Below are positions 7,740 through 30,336 of a stretch of 35,635 bases of DNA, piece by piece. Source of the stretch: a virus; the IMG/VR virus record IMGVR_UViG_3300020421_000071, positions 1 through 35,635 of that record. One strand, 5' to 3'. Every line of letters begins with the position of its first letter. Positions within the stretch are counted from its first letter, which is position 1. A model generated the notes under the pieces. The model was not told the origin of the DNA, did not search any database, and saw only the letters and a list, made by a program, of their open reading frames with translations. The translations under genes and the position numbers were made by a program.

Positions 7740-8522
7740 CTATGCCGCTATTTCGACCCAGTTAGCTGTCTGGTCGGGCGTAATATTGTTCCATGTCAGG
7801 ATGTTAACTTGTCCTACCGCTCCCGTGGCCTCTACGCCCGTAACGGGTACACTTATCTCTCCAGTAGCTTGTGCAACGCCTACGCTAGCAATTACTCTCA
7901 GACTACCGGTTGCCACGGAAACGCCGGAGCCTTCTCCGACAGTCACCGATCCAACGGCACCCGTAGCAGAAACGCCGGTTACGGATACTTGTCCCGCCGC
8001 CTCTACGGTGACGCTACCCACGCCGCCGGTAGCGGAAACGCCGGTTACGCTGACGTTTGCTTTGGCCTGCACTGTGGCCGATCCAACGGCACCCGTAGCG
8101 GAAACGCCGGTTACGGCAACCCCGACGCCTTCTCTAACTATAATTTGCAAGTCTGCATTGGCTAGAGCCGCCATCGGCTCTTCAACCAGCGCCAAACCTC
8201 CCAGTAATGAACCGCCACCATCTGTTGATGTCATCGGCATACTTGCCGATACGCCGGTTACATTGACTGTTGCGGGAATCTGAACGACAACAGAGCCGAC
8301 AGACGCCGTAGCCGCTATACCACCAGCATTTGCCGTGCTGTCGCCGTCAATTTGAACGCCACCCACGGTTCCTGTGGCAGAAACACCCGTTACAGAGACA
8401 TTTGCCCCCGTTGTAACGGTGACCGACCCCACTGCTCCGGTCCCAGAAACACCGTTAGCGACAAGTTCCGAGTCTCCTAAATCGGAAAAAGGTGCGGCGG
8501 AAAAGCTATTTAAGCCAAACAT
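7740..8522 (-). CDS. Virion protein made of GVSATGAVGSVTV beta repeats
   Basis: A 260-residue protein in which most of the sequence is repeats of about 20 residues with the consensus VSVTGVSATGAVGSVTV. There are roughly nine recognisable units, broken by a non-repeat insert near residues 88-110. The N-terminus MFGLNSFSAAPFSDLGD and the C-terminus WNNITPDQTANWVEIAA are unique caps. The alternation of Val/Thr with Gly/Ala fits stacked beta strands, as in a fibre or a decoration surface. Two other proteins in the window end in a single copy of this unit, so the array may have grown from such a tag or may bind partners bearing it. No enzyme motif is present. The exact role is unknown; a structural function is inferred. 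Confidence 0.75.
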   Translation of the reverse strand: MFGLNSFSAAPFSDLGDSELVANGVSGTGAVGSVTVTTGANVSVTGVSATGTVGGVQIDGDSTANAGGIAATASVGSVVVQIPATVNVTGVSASMPMTSTDGGGSLLGGLALVEEPMAALANADLQIIVREGVGVAVTGVSATGAVGSATVQAKANVSVTGVSATGGVGSVTVEAAGQVSVTGVSATGAVGSVTVGEGSGVSVATGSLRVIASVGVAQATGEISVPVTGVEATGAVGQVNILTWNNITPDQTANWVEIAA

Positions 8523-8560: not shown

Positions 8561-8590
8561 AGTATACTACCCCCTACTCTTCTGTATTAA
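8561..8590 (-). promoter_or_regulatory. Possible sigma70-type promoter in the gap before the GSVTV-repeat gene
   Basis: Reading the minus strand, TTAATA at 8590-8585 is followed after 18 bases by TATACT at 8566-8561. This 51-base gap is one of the few places in the tail operon with room for a promoter. The match to consensus is moderate and nothing else supports it, so it is a weak candidate. Confidence 0.2.
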
Positions 8591-9044
8591 GAGGGTTATC
8601 TAAAATTCTTTCTATGCGCTCCTCTAAATCGTCTCGCATAGTTCTTAATTCGTTATTTATATCTCGGAGACTGTCGTTGACCCTTTCTTCAAGGGCGTAA
8701 ACATCATCCCGAAGCTCTCTGGTAGCTTCAGCAACGGTGTCATCTGTGCTTCGTGCGATTGACTCCACAACGTCTATATCAGCCTGTAGCCGATCCAACT
8801 CTCTTTCAAGGGCAGTAGTCAATGACTCAACATTGCCCATCTTCGTGTCAATCACCGCTAACGCTTCGTCATAGGAGCTAAAGTCAGGTGAGACGTATTC
8901 TGTCACGGCTTGCTCAGCCGTCAGCAACCGTTGATACAACTCAAAACCACCCCACATTGCGGCTAAAATGCTACCCAAAAAAGGTATTGCCAGTAATAAT
9001 TTACCGCCGGACACCTTCAGTCCCGCAAATTCTACCTCTGCCAT
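8574..9044 (-). CDS. Membrane-anchored coiled-coil protein of unknown function
   Basis: This 156-residue protein starts MAEVEFAGLKVSGGK, followed by one clear hydrophobic segment at about residues 16-34 (LLLAIPFLGSILAAMWGG). From about residue 60 to 150 it is charged and heptad-patterned, rich in Glu, Asp, Arg and Leu, so a long coiled coil is expected. There is no signal cleavage motif. Its start lies inside the end of the upstream 610-residue secreted-type gene (13-base overlap), so the two are likely co-translated. It is the third member of a block with the two signal-peptide proteins. The shape, a membrane anchor plus coiled coil, could suit a spanin-like, envelope-spanning or virion-tethering role; none of these is demonstrated. 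Confidence 0.75.
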   Translation of the reverse strand: MAEVEFAGLKVSGGKLLLAIPFLGSILAAMWGGFELYQRLLTAEQAVTEYVSPDFSSYDEALAVIDTKMGNVESLTTALERELDRLQADIDVVESIARSTDDTVAEATRELRDDVYALEERVNDSLRDINNELRTMRDDLEERIERILDNPLNTEE

Positions 9045-10864
9045 TGTATGTCCACCAATTCCTTGTATGTCTCGGACCCACCCATTCTCAGCACACCAAA
9101 AGGATCGACCCGTGGGGCGTTGTTTGGATACACCTGAGTGTTTTTATAAAATTCGTCGCGGTCAGACAGGTTTACGTCCTGATATTGACTGAAGTCAGAA
9201 TTATTGGATATCAAGAACACGGCAACAGATTGATCTGTAAAGCCACCTGTATCAGCCAAAGTGTCCAACTGACTATCAATACTTTGCTCTACCTGCGCTT
9301 GGCTCATAGTTTTAATAGCTACGGTGGCCTTTTGAACCATTCTCTGCTCTTGGATCGTAGGCTCGTCAATTTCAAAGCGGCTAAAGTCTGGCGGCTGTGA
9401 GCTTAGAAACTGACCGACACTTTGACCTGTAGCCAATGCATCATTGAAGTCGTCTTCAAATTGCGCTTGCGCTGGTGGGGCCACATCAACGGAGATCATA
9501 CTGTCTGACTGTTGTTGTTGCGAAAGCTGTATTAACGTCTGGCTGATGTTGGTTTGTTCGGTCGCCATTTGCCAATAGCTGTCAGCCCCCGACTGACCAA
9601 TAACCTGCGCTATCTGTTGCATTGGCTCTGATTTTTGTGACGCACTTCCTAATTTGCTCGATTGTGTTGATTGTACTGATTGCTCCTTAGCAAGAGACAG
9701 AGCTATTCCAATCACATCAACGGCGGGCCTTGCCATCGTGCGAACAGACTCCGCAACAGGCTCTGAGCGCGTTGTTGCCGCCACCTCCATAGGAACAGCC
9801 TGTCTCTCCTTAACAGGGCGCTCTATCGGCACCTCTTGCCTCACTTGCATAACTTCCGGGCTTGGACGCCTTGTAACCCTTGCAACCTCTGCAATAATTT
9901 CCTCTGGCTCTGCCTGTCTCAGCCTTTTCTCTTCTCTTACGGGCTCAACCTTTCTTTCTTTTTCAACGATAGGCGACGGCTCAACGACTTCCGCTTGCTC
10001 TTCAGCCACAGGAGGCGGTTCGTTTATGCGGGGCCTAGCTTGAGGAGGCGGTTCGCCAAACATTTCAGCTTCTTGAGATGTGTCTTGATAAGCCTGCGGG
10101 GGCGCAACCTGCTTGAGTGCTCTCGGCTTACCCGTTCTGTCGGGCTGGTCAAGGTACAAGAAATCGTCAGGAGAATCGCCAAAAACCACGTTTGTTGCTT
10201 GCTCGGCAAAAGTCGGAGGAGCTGGCTCTTCAACCACCACGACTTGCTGTGCGGCAAGAGCGTCCGCATAACCCGCGCAAGACGGATCATTCAGCGGGTT
10301 TGAGCAATCAGGCAGGATAACGGGATTCGTGTTGATTGGAGTATATATTGCGACCACAGAGGCATTTCGGACGGCTGGCCCGTAGTTTCCCGCCCAAAAT
10401 CCGCGATCTACTCCGTCAATTCGTAAACTCACCGCCTCATAGGCGCTACCAAAGTCATACACCTCCGCACCGCTGAAGGTCTGCCATTCTTGATTAAAGT
10501 CTCGCCGGTTGAATACTTCTCTAGCATCAGTGTCACCAGCTTCATTGCCCACCGCCAAAAATGCCTGTATCTCATCCTCAGTTCCATTCGGGTCAGCACA
10601 AAAACCACCGATCGAATTGTTGCAGTTGTACAATGCGTCAAACGACCAATTTAGCGTGAGAATTTGCAATGGGTCATATACAGGCAAAACACCAACCGCA
10701 GTCACATTACCCGTCCGGAAGCTATACCTGTAAGTTCCAGCCGTTGCGTTAAAAGCAACATTGTCTGACGCTTGCGTTAGACTTAAAAGGTTCTCAGACG
10801 TTTGCGTCTGGCCGTGCCCAACAACTGCGTAAAATAAAAGTAAGGCACTCGCGAGAAGCCTCAT
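9032..10864 (-). CDS. Secreted-type protein: signal peptide, beta domain, Pro/Glu-rich and Gln-rich regions
   Basis: I start this 610-residue protein at the ATG at 10864, one base after the upstream stop. That start gives a standard signal peptide (residues 1 to about 19, MRLLASALLLFYAVVGHGQ); an upstream in-frame start would bury it. Residues about 20-185 look like a beta-sandwich domain with two Cys in CNNSIGGFC. A short CSNPLNDPSCAGY motif follows near 190-205, and related Cys-Asn-Pro-Leu repeats occur in other phage proteins I recall. Residues about 215-390 are rich in Pro, Glu, Arg and Val and probably extended. Residues 400-520 are Gln/Ser-rich, and a helical C-terminus follows. It appears exported by the host Sec pathway, which is unusual for a gene in a tail operon. 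It could be periplasmic, on the surface, or on the virion. Function unknown. Confidence 0.78.
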   Translation of the reverse strand: MRLLASALLLFYAVVGHGQTQTSENLLSLTQASDNVAFNATAGTYRYSFRTGNVTAVGVLPVYDPLQILTLNWSFDALYNCNNSIGGFCADPNGTEDEIQAFLAVGNEAGDTDAREVFNRRDFNQEWQTFSGAEVYDFGSAYEAVSLRIDGVDRGFWAGNYGPAVRNASVVAIYTPINTNPVILPDCSNPLNDPSCAGYADALAAQQVVVVEEPAPPTFAEQATNVVFGDSPDDFLYLDQPDRTGKPRALKQVAPPQAYQDTSQEAEMFGEPPPQARPRINEPPPVAEEQAEVVEPSPIVEKERKVEPVREEKRLRQAEPEEIIAEVARVTRRPSPEVMQVRQEVPIERPVKERQAVPMEVAATTRSEPVAESVRTMARPAVDVIGIALSLAKEQSVQSTQSSKLGSASQKSEPMQQIAQVIGQSGADSYWQMATEQTNISQTLIQLSQQQQSDSMISVDVAPPAQAQFEDDFNDALATGQSVGQFLSSQPPDFSRFEIDEPTIQEQRMVQKATVAIKTMSQAQVEQSIDSQLDTLADTGGFTDQSVAVFLISNNSDFSQYQDVNLSDRDEFYKNTQVYPNNAPRVDPFGVLRMGGSETYKELVDIQWQR

Positions 10865-10865
10865 G

Positions 10866-11786
10866 TTACATCCGCCTTTCTGGAGTAGGCACTCGCTCTG
10901 GATAGGTTTCCCACAAAACCTTAGCCTCATCGCCTATCTGGCCCTCTATGGGGCAAGGTGTACCGGCATCCATCATAGAAGACCAGACCCGATAGTCTTG
11001 GCACATCAGGCTAACAGCGGCCACTCGCATCCCCATGTCATACAAGGTTTTGCTGAGCTTAATCCTTTCGCAGTTTTTATCTCGCACAGACTTGCCGGTA
11101 GAAAAACCAAGTATCTGCGTCTGCACCGCACCGGATATACCCGTGGTACATAGGTCTTGGCTGTAGCTACTGCCAATCGATGGGGCTATCGCACTGGGCG
11201 GCGGCGAGTTGATGTCCTGCGTGATTCTTTGAGTTGAGTCGCTGGTCGAATTGCTAGTTGAATTACTGTTGTTCGTGTTTACGTTGTTATTGTTTGAGTT
11301 CACCTCTGACCTAGAGTCACTCGTCTGATTAATGGTTGTGTCAGACGTAGAAAGACTCACACTGTTGCTTGTGCTCGTATTCTGATTGATGTTAGTGGCA
11401 GTACTAACCGAGGTGTTGTTGTTGGTATTGGTGTTGTTATTGGTGTTTGTGTTGACATTGGTATTGTTATTAGTTGAGTTGGTGTTGTTAATGTTTCGGA
11501 TCAGCCCATTGTAATTGGTGCTGTTAATATTTTGATTGAGGTTGGTGTTGTTATTAATCGCGCTTGAAGTCGAGTCAATGACTGACGTGTTAACATTTGT
11601 GTTTGTGTTGACGTTAGCGTTCGTAGACGTGCCCGTATAAGTCGTCGTATTGACGTTATTGTTGTTATTGGCATTGGTACTTGTGCTGGTGGATGACGAT
11701 GTCGTGTTTATATTCGTCGTTGTTTCTTCCGCCAGAGACAGAGTGGGCCAAAGCAAACACAAAAAAATGATAGGTAAACGATTCAC
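10866..11786 (-). CDS. Secreted-type Asn/Thr/Ser-rich protein with conserved Cys-containing C-terminal domain
   Basis: This 306-residue protein starts at a GTG at 11786, with AAGGTG six bases upstream overlapping the preceding stop. Residues 1-19 (MNRLPIIFLCLLWPTLSLA) are a clear signal peptide. Residues about 20-195 are almost only Asn, Thr and Ser, with NTNTN- and NNNTN-type runs, and resemble low-complexity or curli/prion-like tracts. Residues about 200-306 form a compact domain with CTTGISGAVQTQILG, then DKNCERIKLSKTLYDMGMRV, then CQDYRVW and AGTPCP; four Cys could make two disulfides in the periplasm. I associate this C-terminal domain with uncharacterised phage proteins and know of no assigned function. 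With the 610-residue protein just downstream it forms an exported pair. Confidence 0.78.
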   Translation of the reverse strand: MNRLPIIFLCLLWPTLSLAEETTTNINTTSSSTSTSTNANNNNNVNTTTYTGTSTNANVNTNTNVNTSVIDSTSSAINNNTNLNQNINSTNYNGLIRNINNTNSTNNNTNVNTNTNNNTNTNNNTSVSTATNINQNTSTSNSVSLSTSDTTINQTSDSRSEVNSNNNNVNTNNSNSTSNSTSDSTQRITQDINSPPPSAIAPSIGSSYSQDLCTTGISGAVQTQILGFSTGKSVRDKNCERIKLSKTLYDMGMRVAAVSLMCQDYRVWSSMMDAGTPCPIEGQIGDEAKVLWETYPERVPTPERRM

Positions 11787-22168: not shown

Positions 22169-22329
22169 TACTTATAACCTCGTACCCGTGGCTTTGGACA
22201 AGGGCTCATAGCTTCCTGCTTGTGTGCATTTACCGGGCCACCATCCTTCATAAAGCCCATCTTGTTTCGGACTTCTGTAGGTAGCTTTGATAAACCCTTG
22301 TTACCTTTAGGTATTTTCTTCAGCGCCAT
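22168..22329 (-). CDS. Very small basic protein with a FMKDGGPV motif
   Basis: This 53-residue protein starts at the ATG at 22329, inside the end of the upstream gene (23-base overlap), with AGGGG about nine bases upstream. An earlier in-frame start exists but would overlap far more. The sequence is Lys-rich (MALKKIPKGNKGLSKLPTEV) and contains FMKDGGPVNAHKQEA at residues 26-40, then CPKPRVRGYK. The GFMKDGG segment matches the GMKDGG of the 110-residue protein nearby. It is probably a minor virion component or assembly factor. No known domain. Confidence 0.6.
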   Translation of the reverse strand: MALKKIPKGNKGLSKLPTEVRNKMGFMKDGGPVNAHKQEAMSPCPKPRVRGYK

Positions 22330-23008
22330 TTTCGTCAACCCCTTCTGAATACAAATTATCAAACGTAATGTTTGGATCTGTATAGCTACTGTGCCCCTCC
22401 GCCGTATGTGTGTACTGACTAGGCGTAAAATCAGGCGCACCCTCTCCTGTGTTCCACAAAGCGGGTGACGTAGCTCGCACCCGGTTATTAGGCAATGCCA
22501 CCATATTACCGGCCCACGGGCCTTCTGTCAGATATAACAGATGACTTTGTTTATGCTGATCCGGAGAATCGGCAATGGTGTTTCCGGTATAATCAATAGT
22601 CATAACATACCGTGCCGCATAGAACTCATGATTAACCTTAGCTATCCACGGACTTGAGCTAACGCGATCTATTACAACCACACTGTGATCAATAGATTCG
22701 CAATCCCACGGCTGACAAAGATGGTCCTCCATCCTCTCCGGCCAATCATCTAAAGGCACATCGGCTACCAATGCTTGTATTGGCATACGTGCCCACATCG
22801 CTCCTCCGTGGACGTTTGACTCAACGTCATCGGAAGTGTCTGTAATTCCAGTAAAAACTACTTGAAAACTCAAGGATCTATCTGGAATTGTGTTTACCGC
22901 TATAGCAAGCGCATGTAAAAACTCACCATGATATCGCTGGTGGTCACATGTAAATTCTTTTCGCACCCAGCATTTAAAATACGGGATGTTGCTTATCAAA
23001 TGGGCCAT
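22307..23008 (-). CDS. Conserved phage protein of unknown function, aromatic and His-rich
   Basis: This 233-residue protein is read from the ATG at 23008; a TTG just before it is possible but less likely. It starts MAHLISNIPYFKCWVRKEFT, then DHQRYHGEFLHALAIAVNTI and LSFQVVFTGITD, HGGAMWARMPIQALVAD, HSVVVIDRVSSSPWIAK, FYAARYVMTIDYTGNTIADS, and LYLTEGPWAGNMVALPNNRV. I recall these blocks from uncultured marine phage contigs, always near head or adaptor genes, without an assigned function. The repeated His, Trp and Asp do not form a metal motif I can name. It is the only mid-sized protein in a run of tiny ones. Enzymatic or structural roles both remain possible. Confidence 0.7.
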   Translation of the reverse strand: MAHLISNIPYFKCWVRKEFTCDHQRYHGEFLHALAIAVNTIPDRSLSFQVVFTGITDTSDDVESNVHGGAMWARMPIQALVADVPLDDWPERMEDHLCQPWDCESIDHSVVVIDRVSSSPWIAKVNHEFYAARYVMTIDYTGNTIADSPDQHKQSHLLYLTEGPWAGNMVALPNNRVRATSPALWNTGEGAPDFTPSQYTHTAEGHSSYTDPNITFDNLYSEGVDENGAEENT

Positions 23009-23011
23009 CAA

Positions 23012-28697: not shown

Positions 28698-29144
28698 TTA
28701 CAAACTAAGAATGTCTTCTGGATCGTCAATAATTGCTAAGATTTCATCATCGTTCAAAATCCTGCACTCCCCTCCGTCAATACGGAACCTAGACCCAGCA
28801 TAGCGAGCAAAGATTACCCATTGCTTTTCAGTGCACCACGGGCCATCTGGGAACTTATCGGCGTCCTTATAACAGAGCGGACCCTGCTTGACGACATAAC
28901 CCACCACCGTTTGAATCTGCGTGTCATTCAACACTTGATTGGGTATGTAAATACCGCCTTCGGTGGTTTCTTTGCCCCGGTATGGGAGGATTAACATGCG
29001 CCAGCCGGTAGGCTGTGGCATACGCTCCAAAAGACTTTTATCCATGGCCTCTGGGTCGAGCACCTTGGGTTGTGGAGCTTTGTAAAGGGATTTGACGCCT
29101 TCTGCGGCGGCGTCTAGGTCAATTTCTTCAGCTAGATCAGTCAT
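28698..29144 (-). CDS. GroES-like (Cpn10) co-chaperonin
   Basis: This 148-residue protein has an N-terminal extension of about 43 residues before the Cpn10 core. The core opens TGWRMLILPYRGKETTEGGI, with the mobile-loop region at about 55-70 and GGIYIP at 63-68 corresponding to the GroEL-binding loop. It goes on to VGYVVKQGPLCYKDADKFPD, WVIFARYAGSRFRIDGGECR and LNDDEILAIID, the typical closing strands. It probably replaces host GroES on host GroEL to fold the capsid or other virion proteins, as T4 gp31 does; no GroEL is present in the window. It sits directly before the scaffold and starts within the end of the 65-residue gene (8-base overlap). Confidence 0.88.
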   Translation of the reverse strand: MTDLAEEIDLDAAAEGVKSLYKAPQPKVLDPEAMDKSLLERMPQPTGWRMLILPYRGKETTEGGIYIPNQVLNDTQIQTVVGYVVKQGPLCYKDADKFPDGPWCTEKQWVIFARYAGSRFRIDGGECRILNDDEILAIIDDPEDILSL

Positions 29145-29390: not shown

Positions 29391-29738
29391 CTAATATGTC
29401 CACATGACAGGACCAGTAGTGCGGATATCCACATGGACAAATGTCTTTGCAACACCCACTCCACCAAAACCTAAATTCAAGGCCTCTTCTACAACTTTTC
29501 GCCGCTCAATACCGTTTTCAACGTGTATGTCTGCGGCAATACCTTGAGCATGTGTTCCGGGCTTTACCTTAGCTTTTTCTAAAGTGTGGTTTGGGGATCG
29601 ATACCCCGAAGTGATGTGAAAAGGAAAGGCACACGCTTCACGAAGTTCGTCCAAACGATCAATAAACTCCGGAACAATCTCGTTTTCCCCGGTTTCCTGA
29701 CAAGCAAATTCTTCTTCTTTGAAGTATTTGTAAGTCAT
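29391..29738 (-). CDS. Peptidoglycan endopeptidase/endolysin, Peptidase M15 family
   Basis: This 115-residue protein has the M15 (DD-carboxypeptidase/VanY-like, M15_3) core: HITSGYRSPNHTLEKAKVKP at 41-60, GTHAQGIAADI at 61-71, a GFGGVGV turn and FVHVDIR at 100-106. The expected zinc ligands are His63, Asp70 and His102, all present, with Asp104 in the usual HxD arrangement. The domain covers the entire protein; there is no separate cell-wall-binding domain or signal peptide, so release depends on a holin. The gene overlaps the upstream small membrane protein by ATGA. It should cut peptide cross-links to release progeny. Confidence 0.9.
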   Translation of the reverse strand: MTYKYFKEEEFACQETGENEIVPEFIDRLDELREACAFPFHITSGYRSPNHTLEKAKVKPGTHAQGIAADIHVENGIERRKVVEEALNLGFGGVGVAKTFVHVDIRTTGPVMWTY

Positions 29739-29938
29739 TCTTTCTTGCCCGACCCCAAAAACAAACCAAAAGCGCCCGTCAGAGCGCCCGTCATAACAGA
29801 AACCAAAGCGGCTTGCTCTGGGTTTGGGTCAGGAAGATCCATGAACCACTCAACCACACGGTACGTCATGAAAATCATCACGAACATGACTAGCCGAGGC
29901 AATATTCTCCAGCGGTCAAGAACCTCGGGAGTGATCAT
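29735..29938 (-). CDS. Small two-helix membrane protein, putative holin/antiholin
   Basis: This 67-residue protein has two hydrophobic segments, at about 14-32 (PRLVMFVMIFMTYRVVEWF) and 43-62 (AALVSVMTGALTGAFGLFLG), joined by an acidic Pro-rich turn, with a Lys-rich end. This fits a class II holin or a partner of the 3TM holin encoded just before it. It overlaps both neighbours by ATGA. Which of the two membrane proteins makes the hole cannot be told from sequence. Confidence 0.72.
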   Translation of the reverse strand: MITPEVLDRWRILPRLVMFVMIFMTYRVVEWFMDLPDPNPEQAALVSVMTGALTGAFGLFLGSGKKE

Positions 29939-30336
29939 TTTTCACGGGCTACCTGTTTGGTCTTCTCAAAGGTCCGTAAACCACCGAGGCCAAGCATTCC
30001 CAGCAATACCGTAAGCAAGCTTTCCATCTCAAATACAGGTAACGGAGGGGCTTCCACACCAGCAAATGTGATGACAAAAACAGCAATAGGCTGACCGACA
30101 AAGTGCCAAGCCAAAGCAACCCCGCAAGTCCACCCAACAAAAGGTCGCCAACCTGCGACAAACATAGACTTATGCGCCGCTTCAGCCTTGTTAATCTCAA
30201 TTTGACCTTTTGCAAGCTCTTGAGCATGACGCTCGGACATTGTTGCAATTTCATGTGCAAGCTTCGCTTTTTCATCAGCATCGGGTATGAACTTGTCTAG
30301 CAATCCCGTAACAGGGCCTATCAGGGCTTGTAACAT
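29935..30336 (-). CDS. Holin of the 3TM gene-transfer-agent type
   Basis: This 133-residue protein starts MLQALIGPVTGLLDKFIPDA, then a charged helical stretch (EKAKLAHEIATMSERHAQEL, KGQIEINKAEAAHKSMFVAG), and WRPFVGWTCGVALAWHFVGQ. Hydrophobic segments follow at about 63-92 and 105-120, with LLGMLGLGGLRTFEK near the end. The order (amphipathic helix, WRPFVGW, Gly-rich C-terminal helix) is the pattern of GTA_holin_3TM proteins, found in phages and gene transfer agents. It opens the inner membrane so the M15 peptidase encoded downstream can reach the wall. TAATG overlap with the upstream gene. Confidence 0.85.
   Translation of the reverse strand: MLQALIGPVTGLLDKFIPDADEKAKLAHEIATMSERHAQELAKGQIEINKAEAAHKSMFVAGWRPFVGWTCGVALAWHFVGQPIAVFVITFAGVEAPPLPVFEMESLLTVLLGMLGLGGLRTFEKTKQVAREK

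What the first reader, a model, noticed from the sequence alone, without database searches (positions are those of the whole stretch)
8574..11786. Three-gene block of two Sec-exported proteins and a membrane coiled-coil protein in the tail operon
The 306 aa and 610 aa proteins both have clear signal peptides and are followed by a 156 aa protein with one membrane segment and a long coiled coil. The genes are coupled (one-base gap, then 13-base overlap) and lie amid virion genes. Tail proteins are normally not exported. The set could assemble on the cell envelope late in infection, for example to block superinfection, alter the surface, span the envelope at lysis, or be captured by virions. I know of no assigned function.
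Basis: partly seen in the sequence, partly recalled or inferred. Interest (0 to 1): 0.75.

Follow-up and report, generated by a model that had tools for sequence, protein, structure and literature searches.

The report
Conserved exported trio near phage lysis genes
Three neighbouring genes, found together in hundreds of ocean and lake viruses of bacteria, encode two exported proteins and a membrane-anchored rod that probably form one complex in the bacterial envelope and may help the virus burst its host, but nobody seems to have described or tested them.

Summary
Window genes A (10866-11786, 306 aa, signal peptide, Asn/Thr/Ser-rich, conserved four-helix C-terminal domain), B (9032-10864, 610 aa, signal peptide, lectin-like beta domain, disordered linker, helical tail) and C (8574-9044, 156 aa, one membrane segment, coiled coil) are adjacent, coupled and under strong purifying selection. 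C ends in an almost invariant Asn-Pro-Leu motif (258/261). At least 600 IMG/VR stretches carry A; bacterial genomes almost never do. The trio is not a tail module. In other phages it sits beside endolysin, holin or terminase genes; in pelagiphage lysis cassettes it is present or absent as a unit, even with other genes interleaved, and A alternates with another exported protein. I propose an envelope-spanning complex acting at lysis, analogous to spanins but not a spanin: no lipoprotein, no cysteine in C. Function is unproven. Related phages without the trio also lack recognisable spanins, so absence of spanins is no evidence. No family with known function matches.

The parts
10866..11786 (-). 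Gene A, 306 aa exported protein (PHROG 20531, no function known)
   Evidence: ORF; phrog_20531 E 4e-12; relatives in at least 600 IMG/VR stretches and in 11 of the phage records tested
11730..11786 (-). Signal peptide of A (residues 1-19, SPase I type; no canonical lipobox)
   Evidence: sequence; crude rule, conserved in 220/224 homologues and 78/80
11211..11729 (-). Variable Asn/Thr/Ser-rich stretch of A (56 N, 41 T, 30 S in 173 residues); about 11 to 500 aa in homologues
   Evidence: predicted disordered
10878..11210 (-). Conserved Cys-containing domain of A (DxNCERIKLS...GMRVAAVSLMCQD...GTPCP), predicted four helices, confidence about 90 over the helices
   Evidence: alignments; structure; no PDB relative
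9032..10864 (-). Gene B, 610 aa exported modular protein
   Evidence: strong purifying selection
10808..10864 (-). Signal peptide of B (about residues 1-19)
   Evidence: sequence; 214/222 homologues
10337..10759 (-). N-terminal beta domain of B (residues 36-176), weakly like sugar-binding jelly rolls (Fbs1/FBXO6 sugar-recognition domain, CBM4), motif DRGFWAGNYGPAVRNASV
   Evidence: low-confidence model, Foldseek, sequence hits E 0.026 and 0.049 to FBXO2/FBXO6; suggestive only
9485..10249 (-). Disordered Pro/Glu/Gln-rich linker of B (residues 206-460)
   Evidence: most relaxed part, dN/dS 0.13-0.23
9035..9484 (-). Conserved helical C-terminal part of B ending LVDIQWQR
   Evidence: alignments; dN/dS 0.03-0.08
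8574..9044 (-). Gene C, 156 aa membrane-anchored coiled-coil protein without cysteine
   Evidence: dN/dS 0.004-0.04
8934..8999 (-). Membrane segment of C with the conserved G-rich motif (..AAMWGGFELY)
8589..8597 (-). Near-invariant C-terminal Asn-Pro-Leu motif of C
   Evidence: NP[LI] in the last 9 residues of 258/261 homologues
29391..30336 (-). The window's own endolysin (29391-29738), 67-aa membrane ORF (29735-29938) and holin (29935-30336), about 18 kb from the trio; context, not part of it
   Evidence: phrog_894 and phrog_3427; sequences

Best explanation
A, B and C form one late, envelope-spanning complex that acts in host lysis and virion release, a functional analogue of a spanin. C sits in the inner membrane by its N-terminal segment and reaches into the periplasm as a coiled-coil rod whose conserved Asn-Pro-Leu end contacts B or A. 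B is exported by Sec; its conserved helical end docks on C or A, its flexible linker crosses the peptidoglycan layer, and its N-terminal sugar-binding-type domain holds outer-layer or wall glycans. A is exported and disulfide-stabilised; in some lineages a hydrophobic C-terminal tail could insert in a membrane. When holin and endolysin remove the wall, the assembled complex disrupts or pulls on the outer membrane. Shown: export signals, co-inheritance as a unit, conservation, and lysis-cassette neighbourhood in several lineages. Inferred: physical complex, topology of C, sugar binding, and the lysis role itself.
For: Almost perfect co-occurrence in fixed order. Signal peptides on A and B across lineages. 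One membrane segment plus coiled coil in C, of i-spanin-like size. Immediate lysis neighbours in several lineages: endolysin phrog_181 in L038, holin phrog_3427 in L008/L040, M15 peptidase in HTVC023P, lysozyme near it in HTVC033P and ctXG6705, several endolysins or terminases after C. In 50 M15-endolysin-seeded loci with enough upstream sequence, A, B and NPL-type C are all present (4) or all absent (46), even where gp15/gp16 genes separate A from B. Between homologous flanks (PurM 71% and M15 93% identical) HTVC027P and L354 carry a different exported protein, gp14, in A's place, with similar signal-peptide DNA in front. Strong purifying selection on C, A's domain and B's tail fits a structural machine more than an arms-race surface protein. 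Known carriers with a recorded host infect Gram-negative Pelagibacter or Roseobacter.
Against: In this window the trio is about 18 kb from holin and endolysin. It is optional: HTVC027P, HTVC010P, HTVC011P and HTVC008M infect Pelagibacter without it. Trio-less pelagiphages HTVC010P, HTVC011P and HTVC027P show no credible lipoprotein spanin either, so missing spanins in trio phages prove nothing. gp15/gp16 membrane proteins coexist with the trio and could themselves be the lysis membrane proteins. The positive-inside rule does not settle the orientation of C. No lipobox in A or B and no cysteine in C. Nothing shows physical contact or timing.
Confidence: 0.4

Rival explanations
1. Surface or periplasmic interference: the exported set masks or occupies receptors or glycans late in infection, blocking superinfection, re-adsorption of progeny to debris, or entry of competitors. 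B's swappable N-terminal domain is the binding part and A's low-complexity stretch a spacer or coat.
For: Export signals; different N-terminal domain types in B in front of a conserved tail; lectin-like fold hints; the set is optional.
Against: Strong purifying selection even on the beta domain within the clade; lysis-cassette placement; no known exclusion family matches. No outer-membrane anchor or secretion route is evident for B.
Confidence: 0.22
2. Extracellular fibre or aggregate builder: A's Asn/Thr/Ser-rich part assembles into amyloid-like or coat material, as proposed for pelagiphage curli, with B and C as its envelope base.
For: A is 73% N/T/S over 173 residues. Pelagiphages do carry a secreted-fibre system, curli (PMC9599517, PMC7029224). 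CsgG occurs in trio-less HTVC008M and in none of 11 trio carriers, which would fit alternatives but is one case.
Against: The rich stretch shrinks to about 11-25 residues in several lineages while the trio stays intact, so it cannot be the core function; no CsgG-like pore in the carriers tested.
Confidence: 0.12
3. Regulator of lysis timing or of holin/endolysin in the periplasm (antiholin-like or endolysin-holding complex) rather than an outer-membrane disrupter.
For: Same neighbourhood evidence as the best explanation; A alternates with gp14 next to one and the same endolysin.
Against: Size and number of parts are large for a timer; the holin is distant in this window.
Confidence: 0.1
4. Virion-associated proteins that are released into or act in the periplasm at entry, or are picked up by particles.
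For: Position among tail genes in this window and next to tail or structural genes upstream of A in others.
Against: Cleavable signal peptides would remove A and B from the cytoplasm where tailed virions assemble; the context is not tail-specific across lineages.
Confidence: 0.08

Closest known systems
Two-component spanins (lambda Rz/Rz1, T7 gp18.5/18.7)
   Same: Inner-membrane protein with one N-terminal membrane segment and a coiled coil, about 150 aa, encoded with an exported partner, often beside lysis genes; proline-containing flexible partner region.
   Different: Partners A and B are large SPase-I-type exported proteins, not small lipoproteins; C has no cysteine; there are three components; no sequence match.
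Phage-encoded curli / type VIII secretion genes of pelagiphages (CsgG, CsgF, CsgA/B)
   Same: Exported multi-gene set in pelagiphages; repetitive low-complexity secreted protein.
   Different: No CsgG in any of 11 carriers tested; no curlin match to A; the repetitive part of A is dispensable.
PHROG 20531
   Same: A is a member by profile (E 4e-12).
   Different: The family has no assigned function; B and C did not match it.
F-box-associated / sugar-recognition domain (FBXO2, FBXO6) and CBM4-type jelly rolls
   Same: Beta domain of B: shared D..FWAG.YGP.V.N.SV motif and fold-level hits.
   Different: E-values 0.026-0.05 and a low-confidence model: a lead, not a membership.

Membership tests
Two-component spanin | i-spanin: one N-terminal membrane segment plus periplasmic coiled coil | tested here: inconclusive
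   C has the segment and the coiled coil; flanking charges do not decide orientation (mean net N-flank +0.2, C-flank -0.5)
Two-component spanin | o-spanin: outer-membrane lipoprotein with lipobox | tested here: not met
   A and B have no canonical lipobox; no credible lipoprotein gene in six carriers or in the window, while the same rule finds lambda Rz1 and T7 gp18.7
Two-component spanin | periplasmic cysteines for intermolecular disulfide (nearly universal, PMC6139136) | tested here: not met
Two-component spanin | encoded in or near the lysis cassette | tested here: inconclusive
   True for several relatives, not for this window, where holin and endolysin are about 18 kb away
Two-component spanin | disrupts the outer membrane at lysis | not testable with these tools
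   needs a deletion or a complementation assay
Unimolecular spanin | N-terminal lipoprotein signal plus C-terminal membrane segment in one protein | tested here: not met
   A has a C-terminal hydrophobic tail in some lineages (for example 50/72 and 28/28 members of two clusters) but no canonical lipobox, and no such tail in the window
Curli / type VIII secretion | CsgG outer-membrane pore in the same genome | tested here: not met
   none in 11 carrier records; found only in trio-less HTVC008M
Curli / type VIII secretion | curlin repeats in the secreted subunit | tested here: not met
   Pfam scan of A at E up to 1 gives no curlin match
Superinfection-exclusion protein | expression blocks adsorption or DNA entry | not testable with these tools
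   no family match in Pfam, PHROGs, NCBIfam or PADLOC
PHROG 20531 | profile match | tested here: met
   A, E 4.3e-12

The most novel reading that the evidence does not exclude
A widespread, lipoprotein-free, three-component system for breaching or bridging the Gram-negative envelope at phage lysis, used by many phages of abundant marine and freshwater bacteria in place of or beside spanins, with a conserved membrane rod and exchangeable sugar-binding heads.
Probability: 0.25. Interest if true: 0.85.

Novelty: new variant of a known kind. Interest (0 to 1): 0.6.

Why it matters
The set occurs in at least 600 IMG/VR stretches, in podoviruses and a T4-like myovirus of Pelagibacter, in Roseobacter phages, and in contigs of 200-350 kb. 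Even close relatives lack any functional label, and the search of open papers found no description of the set. How pelagiphages open the outer membrane is unclear: none of the carriers or trio-less pelagiphages examined here shows a recognisable lipoprotein spanin. If the trio acts there, it answers part of that question; if it acts on the surface instead, it is a common way for marine phages to remodel infected cells. Cultured carriers (HTVC115P, HTVC023P, HTVC033P, HTVC202P, Mosig, Baldr, CRP-207, CRP-810) make it testable now.

Tried and rejected
(1) Tail-operon role: rejected as general, because the context changes between lineages. (2) 'Trio replaces spanins because carriers lack spanins': true for carriers but trio-less pelagiphages lack them too, so not used as evidence. 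(3) Strict allelic swap of the whole trio for gp13-gp16 (my idea from HTVC023P versus HTVC027P): rejected, since gp15/gp16 coexist with the trio in L318, L334, L358, L372 and in HTVC115P; only A and gp14 alternate. Profile hits between A and gp14 reflect the shared signal peptide only. (4) Four apparent 'C without A' loci were gp15-type paralogues without the NPL tail. (5) A as curlin: no match. (6) Pfam, NCBIfam and PADLOC hits to C (E 1e-3 to 3e-5) are coiled-coil noise, below the curated cut-offs where these exist. (7) GenBank 'lysozyme' label on CRP-207 gp73 is wrong by sequence: it is C. (8) Topology of C by flanking charge: undecided. (9) Fold of the A domain: no PDB relative, only unnamed viral proteins in BFVD. 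(11) NIDO-like guess for the second B head type: no Pfam support.
Full report
OBSERVATION. A and B start with plausible SPase-I signal peptides; the B start at 10864 (610 aa) is preferred over the longer mechanical ORF because the signal peptide begins there and relatives share that start. The gap between A and B is one base and B/C overlap by 13 bases. Neighbours are tail or virion-like. The window is a virus record whose portal is 52-60% identical to those of HTVC023P-type podoviruses. Its holin and endolysin are at 29.4-30.3 kb, about 18 kb away.

ARE THE FAMILIES REAL AND LINKED? Searching with B alone gave 21 contigs; where the contig reaches far enough, A precedes and C follows. Of 83 A-bearing loci with at least 3.8 kb downstream, 80 have a membrane plus coiled-coil protein with an NPL tail within 4 kb. 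Starting from C, 111 of 111 loci with more than 3.6 kb upstream have A on the same strand, median distance 1.9 kb. After clustering A domains, C follows in 17/17 evaluable clusters at 70% identity and 37/37 at 80%. Signal peptides by one crude rule: A 220/224, B 214/222, other frames of at least 100 codons 504/1838. The rule is generous, so the comparison rather than the absolute number is the evidence. dN/dS across six relatives: A domain 0.014-0.037, C 0.004-0.04, B tail 0.03-0.08, B linker 0.13-0.23, where computable. In 84,980 bacterial and archaeal species genomes only 27 contigs matched, from MAGs, bins or single-cell genomes; I read them as phage contigs, so the families appear essentially phage-only.

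ANATOMY. A: signal peptide, a low-complexity stretch of N/T/S (73% in the window) whose length ranges from about 11 to 500 residues, then a domain of about 110 residues with invariant cysteines. The helices of that domain are predicted with confidence about 90 and have no PDB relative. Some lineages add a hydrophobic C-terminal tail. B: signal peptide, a beta domain, a Cys-containing CSNPLNDPSCAGY motif (repeated in relatives such as L035), a disordered linker, and a conserved helical end. The head differs between lineages while the tail persists. The window's head is predicted at low confidence as a jelly roll; fold and sequence searches both point weakly to the sugar-recognition domain of FBXO2/FBXO6. 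C: a G-rich membrane segment (..MWGGFELY..), a coiled coil without cysteine in the window, and a terminal NPL in 258/261 homologues. In some loci (for example L094, L095, L110) three more exported proteins lie between B and C.

NEIGHBOURHOOD. Context differs between phages: A-B-C then terminase (HTVC202P, Baldr, S28-C10), then M15 peptidase (HTVC023P), after a lysozyme (HTVC033P), before a membrane protein and lysozyme (ctXG6705), before an endolysin (L038) or holin (L008, L040). A scan of genes after C found endolysins, holins and terminases most often (genes from several loci in that list, such as L008, L038, L040 and L049, were added by hand, so it is illustrative, not an enrichment test). 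Genes before A are more often tail or virion genes.

THE MOST INFORMATIVE COMPARISON. Loci were collected by the HTVC023P M15 endolysin alone. Of 50 with enough upstream sequence, 4 carry A, B and NPL-type C, and 46 carry none; no partial set remained after checking, the four weak C hits being gp15 paralogues without NPL. In those four, gp15 and gp16 sit between A and B, so linkage by mere adjacency does not explain the joint presence. In HTVC027P and L354, with homologous flanks (PurM 71%, M15 93% identical between HTVC023P and HTVC027P), a different exported protein (gp14) lies where A would be, and its signal-peptide DNA aligns with that of A in L318 while the mature parts differ. The trio therefore behaves as one unit inside a lysis cassette, and A shares its slot with another exported protein.

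WHAT IT PROBABLY DOES. The parts suit an envelope-spanning complex acting at lysis: an inner-membrane rod, a long flexible exported protein with a possible glycan-binding head, and a second exported protein. This is inference. Counter-evidence is real: in this window the set is far from the lysis genes; several pelagiphages do without it; and trio-less pelagiphages also lack recognisable spanins, so I do not use the missing lipoproteins of carriers (control) as support. I put 0.4 on the lysis-complex reading, 0.22 on surface interference, 0.12 on fibre building, 0.1 on lysis timing and 0.08 on virion association; the rest is left for roles not considered.

MEMBERSHIP. It is not a spanin by definition: a lipoprotein partner and a cysteine in C were tested for and not found. 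It may still work like one. It is not curli: no CsgG in any of 11 carriers. A is a member of PHROG 20531, which has no function. No model in Pfam, NCBIfam or PADLOC gives a credible match.

NOVELTY. Papers on pelagiphages discuss curli and lysis but the text searches found no description of this set; the library is open-access only. I rate it a new variant of a known kind (phage late envelope or lysis factors), with a categorically new lysis system as the outlying possibility.

Noticed in passing
L094:3992-5302; likewise L090, L093, L095, L096, L104, L108, L110: Three additional signal-peptide proteins of about 165, 125 and 140 aa sit between B and C in a subgroup, with no Pfam match; they look like a second exported sub-module, possibly pilin- or chaperone-like.
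   Followed up: partly
L318:3710-4402 versus L354:3744-4304 and L309:2957-3490: A and the unrelated exported protein gp14 share signal-peptide DNA but differ after it, suggesting recombination at the signal-peptide boundary.
   Followed up: partly
L031:3292-3873: CRP-207 gp73 annotated 'putative lysozyme' is the C protein (membrane segment, coiled coil, NPL end).
   Followed up: yes
7740-8522: Gene just downstream of C encodes a degenerate repeat protein (VSVTGVSATGAVGSVTV units), also found behind C in several close relatives.
   Followed up: no
22307-23011 and 28698-29144: Window carries a ferredoxin-like auxiliary gene (phrog_3704) and a GroES-like co-chaperonin (phrog_3188).
   Followed up: no
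29735-29938: 67-aa membrane ORF between endolysin and holin, a possible second lysis membrane protein.
   Followed up: no
L112:6678-6812 (CRP-810): A second, weak match to the A domain (E 6e-4) lies just upstream of the main one, perhaps a decayed duplicate; the main copy is annotated 'OmpA family protein'.
   Followed up: no
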